From positions 1 to 64,000 of the forward strand of contig CALHPJ010000015.1 of the NCBI GenBank assembly GCA_938036345.1: 64,000 bases of DNA, given 5' to 3'. Below, in pieces: positions 28,413 through 31,730 of this stretch (positions are counted from its first letter, which is position 1; each line of letters opens with the position of its first letter). The notes beneath the pieces were generated by a model, which had not been told where the DNA came from, did no database searches, and saw nothing but the letters and a program-made list of their open reading frames with translations. The stretch comes from an uncultured Thermofilaceae archaeon. Lineage in GTDB: Archaea; Thermoproteota; Thermoprotei; Thermofilales; Thermofilaceae. A program made the translations under genes and the position numbers.

Positions 28413-29138
28413 GTGGGAACGCATGTGAGGCTCGTAGTCCCTGCGGTGAGTGCCCGGGAGCTGTACCTGGCGGCTAGGTACGGGCCTGATAGGGTAGGCG
28501 AGAGAGGAAAGGCCGCCGCCAGGTTCCTCGAATCGCTAGGGTTGGCCAACTTCGAGAAAAGCGAGGGGGAGTTTTACGAAGCCCTCCTGTCGACGCTCCT
28601 CGACAAGCTGGGGTTCTCGAAGGCTTTAGAGCTCGTCTCCTCGAGAGCGGGGTGCGTCAGCCCTGCCGCGCTCGCTGAGGCGGCTAGGAAAGCGGGCACC
28701 GACCTCTCGAAAACATCGGCTAGGAACCTCTTCAGGCTCTTCGTGCAGCTGGGCGTCGTATCTAAGCTCGGGACGTGGGCCGCCTACACCCCGAAGCTGG
28801 AGGACGCGATCCTAGCCGCGGTAGCCGCAAAAGGCGAAATTAGAATTAGAGATATCGAAAGGAGATTCGGCTCTGGCGTCAGGGAGGCGGTGCTCAAGCT
28901 GTGGGCGCGGGGGCTTGTGGAGATCGAGGGGAACCCGCGCGGCCCCCTCCGCGGGCCTTTAAGCTTGCCGAGGGAGCTGGTACTCGAGCGCGGGATCGAG
29001 TACCCGGAAGACCTGGTGGAGCAGATGGGCCTTGAGGGGGACCCGCGGCTGGAGAGATTTGTCGAGCGGGAGACCGGCCGGGTCAAGTACTCCATCGCGG
29101 TTAGGGGAGATGATAGGGTGAGAATCGTTGTCCGGTAG
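28413..29138 (+). CDS. Unrecognised protein with winged-helix-like segments, first gene of a two-gene unit
   Basis: 241 residues that I do not recognise as a family. There is no signal peptide or membrane segment. The stretches around residues 75-120 ('VSPAALAEAARKAGTDLSKTSARNLFRLFVQLGVVSK') and 128-165 ('LAAVAAKGEIRIRDIERRFGSGVREAVLKLWARGLVEIEG') both read as helix-turn-helix/winged-helix units. Starts at GTG 28413, 25 bp after 'cttatttt'. Its last 11 bases overlap the start of the ATPase gene, so the two products very likely act together. It may recognise DNA or serve as an adaptor. Confidence 0.6.
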   Translation: MGTHVRLVVPAVSARELYLAARYGPDRVGERGKAAARFLESLGLANFEKSEGEFYEALLSTLLDKLGFSKALELVSSRAGCVSPAALAEAARKAGTDLSKTSARNLFRLFVQLGVVSKLGTWAAYTPKLEDAILAAVAAKGEIRIRDIERRFGSGVREAVLKLWARGLVEIEGNPRGPLRGPLSLPRELVLERGIEYPEDLVEQMGLEGDPRLERFVERETGRVKYSIAVRGDDRVRIVVR

Positions 29139-30975
29139 ACCCAGGGTTACCGCAAGCAGTATCATGGAGAGGGTAACGCGGCTTGAGGGGGTTCTGAAGT
29201 CGGATGATGTCAACTACATAGTAGCGCGCTGGCTGCAGGGCAGGGCGCTGGAGCTCCCTCTAGCTAAGGTCGAAAGCCTCCTGCTTAGGCCGAGGGAGGT
29301 TAAGGCAACCGTAGAAGAGGCGGTTAAAAGGATACTCGCGTGCCTCGAATCCCCTTATGGGGGCGTCCAGATCTTCTCTATTGAGTCGCCCAGGCGGCTG
29401 TACGGCACGGGTAAAACCCAGATAGCTTACTTTGTGTACAAGGAGCTGGAGAGCAGGGGAGTGCCGGTGGAGTACCTCACTGCGAGCGTAGGCGACGTCG
29501 AGAGCGGGAGCTTCAGAGCGAGGCTCTGGGAGGCTGGGAAGTCGAAGGCTGAAGCCGCCATCTTCGTCGATGAAGTAGACGTCCTTGTCTCGCCCGAGCT
29601 GGGGGAGGAGAGGCAGGCGAAAGTCATAGAGGCTTTCGCCAACGCGGTCATAGAGTACTCGGAGGGGCTCTCCCAGTCCAAAGAGTGCAACCAAGCCTTA
29701 GTGCTTGTGCTCAGCTTTAAGGCTAAGGAGGGTATAGAGAGAGTCGCTCAAGACAGGCTCGGGAGGAGGATCATGAACGCGCTCGTTGAGGTCGACGTCA
29801 GCCTAACCAGGGACGATGTTTTCGGGATCTTTGCATCGGCGTCGGCGCTCGCGACGATGTACATGAGCCTTAGGGGGGAGACGATATGGCTTCTTCTGAC
29901 AGAGTTCGCGAACGATTTCGGCCGCTGCCTGTGGAGAGACTCCGACTTGGCTAGCCTCTCAGTGGGTCAAGCTGTAGCATCGGCGCTAAACCTCACGTTA
30001 AGGTTCTCGCGCGGGCTGAGGCGCTCAGACCCCAAGAAAGTACTGCAAGGTTCGCTTGACTCAGCTACGCTGGGCACGAGAGTCGAGAAGACAGTTATAA
30101 GTACGCTGAGCAGAGTGCTGCCGAGCTACACCTTCGAGGTTAGGGACCTGCAACAGACAGTTGAGTGCGTGATCAGCCAGACCCCTATCAGGGTTGGCAA
30201 CTTCCGAGCGGACATGCACTACGCGATCAGGCTCGGAAGGTTGGAGGTGGGCAAGTGCCTGGTCGAAGTTACGGCGGAGCGCGAGCTAAGCTCCAGGAAG
30301 AGGGAGCAGTTGAGGGCGTTTGCCGTCGAATACCCCACGATACTGGTGTACGCTTACGAGCAACCCTCTCAGTTCGAAGAAATAAGAGAGTTTATCGAAG
30401 AACTCCCCGGCCACGGAGTCGTACCGGTAGACCTCCCGCTCCCCCTGTTCAAGTACCCCGCGGCTCTCGAGGAGTACGGCGAGGAGCTCGCGTACAGGCT
30501 TGCCAGGGAGATTAAGCTGCAAGCATCTCTTGAAGCCGCACTGCGAAAGTTAGCTGGCGCAGTGGTGTACACCTGGTTTGCCGTTGAAAAAGCGAGGGAG
30601 GCGCATGCAAAACCTGAAAAAGAGAGGGAGAAAGGGTTGGAGGAAGCTCTGAGAGGCTCCCTGAAGGGGGCACTCCAGCACCTCTTCGCCGCCTCCAGTA
30701 AGAGAGCCGAGAAGACGATCACGGAGTGCTTCGAAAACGCCTTGAGGAAGATCTCCCCCGAAATAGAGAGAAGCTACGTTGCCGTATACACTAAGGACGT
30801 AGTCAAAGAGTGGGCCGACGCAGGACTAGGGAAACTCGGGGAAAAGTTTTTCATCAAATCGGATAGCTGGGATGAAGAGAAAGCCGTTGAAATAGCGGTT
30901 TCGGTTTTTGCACCCCGCTTGTTAAAAATCAGAACTCCAACTGGATTGGAAAATTTCCTGCCAGAACCGAGTTAG
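29128..30975 (+). CDS. Unrecognised P-loop ATPase with a possible nuclease-like C-terminal domain
   Basis: 615 residues. Residues about 60-300 form an AAA-like P-loop ATPase: Walker A 'YGTGKTQ' (92-98), Walker B 'AIFVDEVDVL' (144-153) and a sensor-like 'LVLVLSF' (191-197). Residues about 315-415 have the layout of a PD-(D/E)xK fold: Glu320 in a helix, Asp362 (RADMHY), then 'CLVEVTAE' with Glu380 but Thr at the usual Lys position, and a helix with 'SSRKREQLRAFA'. The last 200 residues are helical. Not similar to any archaeal ATPase family I know by eye. Starts at TTG 29128 (ATG 29164 is possible) and overlaps the upstream gene. Followed by the 31012-31170 rod repeat. Confidence 0.65.
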   Translation: MSGRPRVTASSIMERVTRLEGVLKSDDVNYIVARWLQGRALELPLAKVESLLLRPREVKATVEEAVKRILACLESPYGGVQIFSIESPRRLYGTGKTQIAYFVYKELESRGVPVEYLTASVGDVESGSFRARLWEAGKSKAEAAIFVDEVDVLVSPELGEERQAKVIEAFANAVIEYSEGLSQSKECNQALVLVLSFKAKEGIERVAQDRLGRRIMNALVEVDVSLTRDDVFGIFASASALATMYMSLRGETIWLLLTEFANDFGRCLWRDSDLASLSVGQAVASALNLTLRFSRGLRRSDPKKVLQGSLDSATLGTRVEKTVISTLSRVLPSYTFEVRDLQQTVECVISQTPIRVGNFRADMHYAIRLGRLEVGKCLVEVTAERELSSRKREQLRAFAVEYPTILVYAYEQPSQFEEIREFIEELPGHGVVPVDLPLPLFKYPAALEEYGEELAYRLAREIKLQASLEAALRKLAGAVVYTWFAVEKAREAHAKPEKEREKGLEEALRGSLKGALQHLFAASSKRAEKTITECFENALRKISPEIERSYVAVYTKDVVKEWADAGLGKLGEKFFIKSDSWDEEKAVEIAVSVFAPRLLKIRTPTGLENFLPEPS

Positions 30976-30985
30976 CACCCTAGTG

Positions 30986-30993
30986 CCATATTA
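30986..30993 (+). promoter_or_regulatory. TATA-like box upstream of the rod repeat
   Basis: CCATATTA, centred near 30990 and 11 bp after the ATPase stop. The predicted start site 22-27 bp downstream coincides with the first paired base of the rod (31012), which supports an independent RNA. Confidence 0.5.
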
Positions 30994-31011
30994 GCGCAGA
31001 GGGGAGAAGCG

Positions 31012-31170
31012 GCCGGGCGGGGTCTGTTGGTGGGTTGGCGCTAGCGGTGTGTTGCTGTTGGTTGCCCGCTTCGGGTGAGCCTCTGAGCCTATGCCCAGGG
31101 GCTTCCCGCTTCGGGCAGCCTCCAGCTCCACACCCTCGAGGCCATCCCACCAGCAGGCTTCCCGCCCGGC
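31012..31170 (+). ncRNA. Candidate rod-like non-coding RNA (159-nt imperfect inverted repeat)
   Basis: The whole segment folds on itself around a CTAT loop at 31089-31092. Paired blocks from the base inward: 31012-31021 with 31161-31170 (10 of 10); 31024-31034 with 31146-31156 (11 including one G-U); 31036-31039 with 31141-31144; 31046-31051 with 31129-31134 (6); 31054-31057 with 31123-31126; 31060-31068 with 31112-31120 (9, one G-U); 31072-31075 with 31105-31108; 31078-31088 with 31093-31103 (10 of 11). Small symmetric internal loops separate them. I see no SRP domain IV motif, no RNase P core and no tRNA features. No open frame. Could also be a miniature inverted-repeat element, but the TATA-like box and stepwise compensating pairs favour RNA. 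Confidence 0.5.
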
Positions 31171-31730
31171 AAGTATTACTTATCAGCAATGGTTAAAATA
31201 CACTCCGCCAAACAACGAAACTTTCAAGCACCTAAACATCTTCAGCATACTCCATGCTTTTTAAGTAAAACCCTACCGATCTTTACAGAGGTTGCGCGGG
31301 TGGAAAGCCTCTTCGGCTACCGTGGGCGGTCCCTCAGCCCAGAACGCAGCCGACCGCGAAGGCGTCTGAGTAACACGCTGTAAAGAAAGCTGAAACTGGG
31401 CCGGTTTTCCTCCGCTCCCTCAAGCACAGCTCTAGCGGCCTCGACCGCCTTAACCAGCTCCGCTTTAAGGGGTTCAGTATCCGCCTTCCCCCCGATGTTT
31501 TTCCTCTCCTTTGGATTTAGTAGGTGGCTACCTTCTTCGTGCACCTCATCCATCTAAACTCAGCTTTGATTTTTCTCAGGCTGTTTTAGACTAACGCTTA
31601 AAATCGGGTCCCTGGTGCGTATACCATTTTTTAAGGGAACCCGCTTTACGTCCAAAACGTCACACGAGTGCTGAGTAAAAAACTGCCGATACTCGACTGA
31701 GACGATCGTTTCCTGGTTATTAACCGAGAG
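31171..31730. other. Gap between the rod repeat and the ABC exporter genes
   Basis: About 560 bp with no convincing gene. The only frame of note is on the minus strand at 31317-31553 (listed separately). AT-rich stretches occur near 31190-31270 and 31560-31700 (for example TTTTTTAAGG around 31627-31636). No repeat or RNA structure comparable with the rod was seen. Confidence 0.4.
31317..31553 (-). CDS. Small hypothetical protein, doubtful
   Basis: 78 residues starting 'MDEVHEEGSHLLNPKERKN' with a central amphipathic helix 'PLKAELVKAVEAARAVLEGAEE' and a very Arg-rich tail that is likely out of the true frame. The first 55 residues have protein-like composition and 'attttaag' lies upstream near 31595, but the last part looks like random GC-rich translation. 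It may be the start of a broken gene. No family recognised. Confidence 0.2.
   Translation of the reverse strand: MDEVHEEGSHLLNPKERKNIGGKADTEPLKAELVKAVEAARAVLEGAEENRPSFSFLYSVLLRRLRGRLRSGLRDRPR

What the first reader, a model, noticed from the sequence alone, without database searches (positions are those of the whole stretch)
31012..31170. 159-nt rod-shaped inverted repeat with its own TATA-like box: candidate new ncRNA
About 60 of the bases on each arm pair in eight blocks separated by small, nearly symmetric internal loops, with three G-U wobbles, ending in a 4-nt loop at 31089-31092. CCATATTA at 30986-30993 would start transcription at the first paired base. I see no SRP domain IV, RNase P, tRNA or C/D-box signals and no reading frame. 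It follows directly after the unknown ATPase gene at 29128-30975. Rods this long are unusual; alternatives are a MITE or an attachment-type element.
Basis: seen in the sequence. Interest (0 to 1): 0.75.

Follow-up and report, generated by a model that had tools for sequence, protein, structure and literature searches.

The report
Conserved rod-shaped RNA gene in archaea
A 159-base stretch of an archaeal genome that folds into one long hairpin belongs to a small, uncatalogued family with its own conserved promoter-like region, so it is probably a new non-coding RNA gene, read from the opposite strand to the one first proposed.

Summary
The hairpin is real: 31012-31170 folds at -121 kcal/mol, z -10.7, with no Rfam match at gathering score. 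DNA search finds one copy in this genome. Covariance models found six more loci in four genomes of the same family: seven loci, six distinct sequences, 127-159 nt. Pairing is kept through double changes (34 of 63 pairs; 0 of 500 shuffles). On the minus-strand upstream side a GAAA(C/G)TTTC-type motif lies exactly 55 nt before the rod in all, and a TATA-like box 27-29 nt before it in five of six distinct sequences; a pyrimidine-rich tract follows the other end. Two sites are syntenic between genomes, and one genome carries two identical 232-bp copies. Against a simple RNA reading: opposed G-U and A-C mismatches show no strand bias (19:24), unlike SRP RNA (57:18). No transcript evidence is on hand. 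The molecular role is a guess: a protein-binding rod.

The parts
31012..31170 (-). rod-shaped hairpin; putative RNA, 5' end at 31170, 3' end near 31012
   Evidence: Fold z -10.7 (+ strand), -8.2 (- strand with flanks); six further loci by covariance model; covariation. Strand inferred from the promoter-like region.
31085..31096 (-). apical stem-loop, GGGC-NNAG-GCUC on the minus strand: the most conserved stretch of the rod
   Evidence: Columns 78-81 and 84-89 invariant in 5 of 5 rows of A5, including a G-U pair kept in 5 of 5 (an A-C mismatch on the plus strand). The sixth sequence, G013 site B, not in A5, reads AGGCGAAGGCTT: outer pair changed to A-U, G-U kept.
31191..31200 (-). TATA-like box (TATTTTAACC on the minus strand), T-run about 28 nt before the rod
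   Evidence: A T-run 27-29 nt before the rod in 5 of 6 distinct members; absent at that place in G014.
31216..31226 (-). upstream near-palindrome (TGAAAGTTTCG on the minus strand)
   Evidence: GAAA(C/G)TT(T/A)C exactly 55 nt before the rod start in the six rows; the seventh locus, G013 site B, has GAAAGTTTT in the same ungapped register. Best 11-column block 59 of 66 against a shuffled maximum of 45 in 2000.
31232..31245 (-). second, weaker conserved upstream block (CTGAAGATGTTTAG on the minus strand)
   Evidence: Ungapped register: positions -72, -66 and -63 identical in 6 of 6 distinct members.
30998..31011 (-). pyrimidine-rich tract directly after the rod (CGCTTCTCCCCTCT on the minus strand), terminator-like
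   Evidence: C/T-rich stretch at or near this place in the downstream listing (7 loci); termination inferred, not shown.
30986..30993 (+).
   Evidence: Present but no counterpart at this place in the other loci.
29128..30975 (+). neighbouring AAA-type ATPase gene (615 aa), convergent with the putative RNA; not functionally tied to it
   Evidence: Pfam AAA E 6.1e-06; orthologue in G006 without a rod behind it.

Best explanation
The segment is a gene for an independently transcribed, structured non-coding RNA of about 130-160 nt, read from the minus strand of the window. Transcription would start at the first paired base (31170), set by a TATA-like box about 28 nt upstream and a factor-binding near-palindrome 55 nt upstream, and end in the pyrimidine tract just past 31012. 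The RNA folds into one long imperfect rod with a conserved apical hairpin (GGGC-NNAG-GCUC). My best guess at how it works is that the rod is a stable scaffold and the apical hairpin the binding site of a protein, so that it acts as a ribonucleoprotein or as a regulator that holds a protein. Shown: the rod, its homologues, compensatory changes, fixed spacing of upstream elements, synteny. Inferred: transcription, strand, start and end. Guessed: protein binding and function.
For: Fold far outside chance. Homologous rods: R1 finds own and 3 further genomes of 31 searched, R2 own and 4 of 81, R3 own and 4 of 31, with 7 loci. In a five-row alignment 34 of 63 pairs show a change on both sides with pairing kept, 83% of cells paired; no shuffle of 500 and no slid register reaches this; row identities are 37-61%. 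G009 lacks matching pieces of both arms. Upstream motif at exactly 55 nt in six rows and in register in the seventh locus; T-run at 27-29 nt in 5 of 6 distinct sequences. The same kind of box lies some 30 nt before SRP RNA genes of several relatives (upstream stretches printed, read by eye); a TATA box 26 nt before the SRP RNA start is reported for Thermoproteus (PMC4731332, passages seen). Synteny: site B (between an HD-domain gene and glycerol kinase) holds a rod in G006, G009 and G013, the three of four genus-g7 genomes in which the HD gene was found; site A (beside an MFS gene) in G013 and G009 with both flanking proteins homologous (67% and 40%), and in G014 beside MFS fragments.
Against: No transcript data. 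In the rods, opposed G-U (19) and A-C (24) mismatches are equally common in the minus-strand reading, while 20 SRP RNAs of relatives handled much the same way give 57:18 (Fisher p 0.0007). The minus strand folds better in 3 of 5 sequences compared, the plus strand in 2 of 5, the window being one of these two; SRP RNA folds better in sense in 20 of 20. So the base pairs do not tell an RNA strand, and DNA-level or mutational maintenance of the palindrome is not excluded. Distribution is patchy: 5 of the 17 genomes of the family (own plus 16), though not all candidates were scored (as few as 93 of 1557). The G014 copy has a broken palindrome and no TATA-like box in place.
Confidence: 0.58

Rival explanations
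1. A small, slowly mobile palindromic DNA element (MITE- or ERIC-like) that carries a promoter-like region; the rod is its palindrome.
For: Long imperfect palindrome in intergenic DNA; loci at three different places (sites A, B and the window); two identical 232-bp copies in G009 in unrelated surroundings; no strand bias of mismatches.
Against: One copy in this genome and one or two in the others; no obvious target-site duplication at the borders of the 232-bp block (read by eye); sites A and B are shared between genomes; the identical G009 block can equally be gene conversion between two standing loci.
Confidence: 0.2
2. A DNA-level site: the 11-bp motif, the AT-rich box and the hairpin form a recognition complex (replication, partition or recombination), acting as cruciform or duplex DNA.
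For: No strand bias of mismatches; fixed 55-bp spacing suits a DNA complex as well; compensatory changes also keep a DNA cruciform.
Against: The AT-rich box has TATA-box form and lies at the usual promoter distance from the rod's first base; the other end runs into a pyrimidine tract as a terminator would; a G-U pair in the apical stem is kept in all six distinct sequences. Copy number and place vary, and 12 of 17 family genomes show none.
Confidence: 0.15
3. A palindrome kept up by template-switch (quasi-palindrome) mutation between its arms, without function of its own.
For: Such correction produces paired changes without strand bias (mechanism recalled), as seen.
Against: Does not explain the conserved upstream motif at fixed spacing, the conserved ends and apical hairpin, or synteny across genomes.
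Confidence: 0.05
4. A divergent known RNA (SRP RNA, RNase P RNA, tRNA).
For: No Archaea_SRP or RNaseP_arch match was found elsewhere in this genome.
Against: No Rfam hit at gathering score in the window; at E up to 10 only two miRNA-precursor models well below their cut-offs; no tRNA; three other carriers of rods (G006, G009, G014) have SRP RNA matches elsewhere.
Confidence: 0.02

Closest known systems
Bacterial 6S RNA (recalled; titles and abstract openings seen)
   Same: Rod-shaped RNA of similar length from its own gene.
   Different: 6S RNA has a large central bubble that mimics an open promoter (recalled); no shared bubble here, the G006 rod being nearly paired throughout. No Rfam hit.
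ERIC/REP-type extragenic palindromes and MITEs
   Same: Imperfect palindrome in intergenic DNA.
   Different: REPs are 14-40 nt in E. [quoted passage not shown] here 127-159 nt, one or two copies, with a conserved upstream region of about 80 nt.
Archaeal SRP RNA (RF01857)
   Same: Has long rod portions (recalled); TATA-like box some 30 nt upstream in several relatives.
   Different: No match of the model to the rod; mismatches strongly strand-biased in SRP RNA, not here.

Membership tests
Independently transcribed structured ncRNA (general kind) | Conserved secondary structure with compensatory changes | tested here: met
   34 of 63 pairs, 0 of 500 shuffles; the alignment has 5 rows and the structure was derived from it. 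With the window's own structure on 4 rows: 23 of 64 pairs, 0 of 500.
Independently transcribed structured ncRNA (general kind) | Own promoter at fixed distance | tested here: met
   Motif at 55 nt in 6 of 6 distinct sequences, T-run at 27-29 nt in 5 of 6. Sequence evidence only; promoter activity not tested.
Independently transcribed structured ncRNA (general kind) | G-U rather than A-C on the transcribed strand | tested here: not met
   19 G-U against 24 A-C; SRP control 57:18.
Independently transcribed structured ncRNA (general kind) | A transcript | not testable with these tools
   No RNA data on hand.
MITE / ERIC / REP | Many dispersed copies in a genome | tested here: not met
   1 copy in own genome; 1-2 in four others.
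MITE / ERIC / REP | Target-site duplication | tested here: inconclusive
   None obvious at the ends of the G009 232-bp block, read by eye.
SRP RNA (RF01857) | Match to the covariance model | tested here: not met
RNase P RNA (RF00373) | Match to the covariance model | tested here: not met
   the type T model was not searched genome-wide.
microRNA precursors MIR1144 / MIR1858 | Score above gathering cut-off | tested here: not met
   27.7 of 90 bits and 27.4 of 137 bits, and both strands match: generic rod similarity.
6S RNA | Central open-promoter-like bubble | tested here: not met
   No bubble shared by the six folds or by the consensus, judged by eye; the feature itself is recalled.

The most novel reading that the evidence does not exclude
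A new archaeal RNA class: a nearly fully double-stranded, self-promoted rod RNA that works by its long duplex and apical hairpin, for instance as a global decoy or regulator of a nucleic-acid-binding protein or of RNA polymerase, in function an archaeal counterpart of 6S RNA, kept in one or two loci that exchange sequence by gene conversion.
Probability: 0.1. Interest if true: 0.85.

Novelty: new variant of a known kind. Interest (0 to 1): 0.55.

Why it matters
If transcribed, it adds a lineage-restricted RNA family with an unusually long duplex and a dedicated upstream promoter element to archaea, in which few structured regulatory RNAs are known (recalled). The fixed upstream motif also gives a handle on an unknown transcription factor, and the two loci that are identical in one genome may be a case of concerted evolution of an RNA gene.

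Tried and rejected
Known RNAs: Rfam at gathering score on the whole window gave nothing; at E up to 10 only generic miRNA-precursor rods; the stretch to the right gave noise. tRNA scan empty. The bacterial-type promoter scan found none and the two terminator-like sites are as expected by chance.

ATPase link: rejected, since the orthologous pair in G006 has no rod behind it; one further relative of the ATPase was found in an Asgard-group contig, not examined for rods.

DNA similarity as a way to homologues failed; only covariance models worked. Phage and plasmid collections: no match for the rod nor, in phages, for the ATPase. Viral contigs: two exact patterns gave 84 and 97 stretches, of which the 80 listed each time were scanned with R3; nothing in the first set and best scores of 17.2 bits in the second, so no member.

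Strand by wobble pairs: tried, no bias; reported as evidence against.

Literature: searches 'Thermofilum + small RNA + hairpin', '6S RNA + archaea + rod', 'archaea + non-coding RNA + Thermoproteales + RNA-seq + intergenic', 'miniature inverted-repeat + Thermofilum', 'novel RNA families + archaea + structured non-coding RNA + hyperthermophilic' and 'Thermofilaceae + non-coding RNA' showed nothing that describes this element in the listings and abstract openings that I saw. I read passages of PMC12306157 and PMC4731332 only. The library lacks most subscription journals.

Full report
What is there. It is the most stable place in the window. The genome is archaeal: 17 of the 31 genomes compared carry an archaeal SRP RNA above the curated cut-off, though this genome itself shows none. 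I believe the family is Thermofilaceae, from recall only.

Known families. No Rfam family reaches its gathering score anywhere in the window. With a lax threshold only two microRNA-precursor models match, on both strands and far below their cut-offs, which says only that it is a rod.

Relatives. DNA search finds one copy in the genome and none elsewhere in 81 class genomes apart from a 29-base match of E 0.006 in G044. A covariance model built from the window sequence alone (R1) found rods of 155-158 nt in G006, G013 and G014, out of 31 genomes searched. A four-sequence model (R2) over 81 genomes gave own, G006, G009, G013 and G014. A five-sequence model in minus-strand orientation (R3) over 31 genomes gave seven loci in these five genomes, the new one being a second copy in G013. 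All five belong to one family of 17 genomes (own plus 16): 3 of 4 in genus g7, 1 of 7 in g6, 1 of 1 in g1, 0 of 5 in the other genera. The negatives are soft, because the first look scored only part of the candidates in many genomes. The two G009 copies are identical, so there are six distinct sequences.

Covariation. On the five-row alignment (G013 site B, found later, is not in it) 34 of 63 pairs show double changes that keep pairing; 0 of 500 shuffles reach this, and sliding the partners by one to three columns lowers the covariation score from 0.456 to 0.163 or less. The structure was derived from the same alignment, which favours it. On the earlier four-row alignment with the structure of the window alone, 23 of 64 pairs show double changes, again 0 of 500. 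Rows are 37-61% identical. G009 lacks matching pieces of both arms.

Promoter and strand. Aligned without gaps from the rod's outer end on the window's right side, the members share GAAA(C/G)TT(T/A)C exactly 55 nt before the rod in all six rows, and GAAAGTTTT in the same register in G013 site B. The best 11-column block scores 59 of 66; the highest of 2000 shuffles is 45 (these shuffles keep base composition only and ignore relatedness). A T-run of TATA-box form lies 27-29 nt before the rod in five of six distinct sequences; G014 lacks it, and its palindrome is broken. On the other side there is a pyrimidine-rich tract and no shared TATA-like box. This is the lay-out of an archaeal promoter, a start at the first paired base, and a terminator, on the minus strand. 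A TATA box 26 nt before the start is reported for the Thermoproteus SRP RNA (PMC4731332, passages).

Synteny. Site B, between an HD-domain gene and glycerol kinase, has a rod in G006, G009 and G013. I gave 17 of the 30 HD-gene loci to R3 (L093, L094 and L096-L106 were not given); 3 of the 17 hold a rod, these three. Site A, beside an MFS transporter, has one in G013 and G009, with both neighbouring proteins homologous, and in G014 beside MFS fragments that match in pieces. In G009 the copies at A and B are identical over 232 bp, from about 85 nt upstream of the rod to about 15 nt after it, while the flanks differ. That is either gene conversion or a duplicated unit that comprises promoter, rod and tail.

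Evidence against. If a transcript were selected for pairing, G-U should outnumber A-C among opposed mismatches on its strand. In folds without G-U the six rods give 19 G-U and 24 A-C in the minus-strand reading; 20 SRP RNAs of the relatives, treated much the same way (the loop walk in the script was different, and two of the rods branched in that fold), give 57 and 18 (Fisher p 0.0007). Full folds favour the minus strand in G013 site A, G014 and G009 and the plus strand in the window and G006 (G013 site B was not compared). One G-U pair in the apical stem is kept in six of six, but overall the pairs do not point to a strand. DNA-level or mutational upkeep of the palindrome remains possible.

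Judgement. I put 0.58 on an independently transcribed RNA gene on the minus strand, 0.2 on a rare mobile palindromic element, 0.15 on a DNA-level site. The function is a guess: rod as scaffold, apical hairpin as protein site. It is a real, conserved feature, undescribed as far as the searches show, and of a known general kind.

Noticed in passing
window 28413-29138 and 29128-30975: A two-gene pair (241-aa protein with no Pfam match, then a 615-aa AAA-type ATPase) is rare: in 61 genomes searched only G006 has a close copy of the ATPase (43%, with a similar gene in front), and one Asgard-group contig (L027) a distant one (26%). No PADLOC hit, no match in the phage collection.
   Followed up: partly
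whole genome G000: No Archaea_SRP or RNaseP_arch match in this 92%-complete assembly, although most family members have an SRP RNA match; G013 lacks one too. Assembly gap, divergence or a permuted gene are all possible.
   Followed up: no
G028:C5:12077-12250: The SRP RNA match covers only model positions 99-273, as a permuted gene of the Thermoproteus type might (PMC4731332 seen in passages).
   Followed up: no
window 31317-31553 (minus): A 78-aa open frame in the same direction as the putative RNA, between it and an ABC transporter pair; not tested as a gene.
   Followed up: no
window 31286-31400 (plus): GC-rich stretch after an AT-rich TATA-like run (CTTTTTAAG) that looks RNA-like by eye; only noise in Rfam.
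   Followed up: partly
L052 (G014:C1) about 1800-2430: The MFS gene next to the rod matches only in fragments, and this rod's upstream motif is also decayed.
   Followed up: partly
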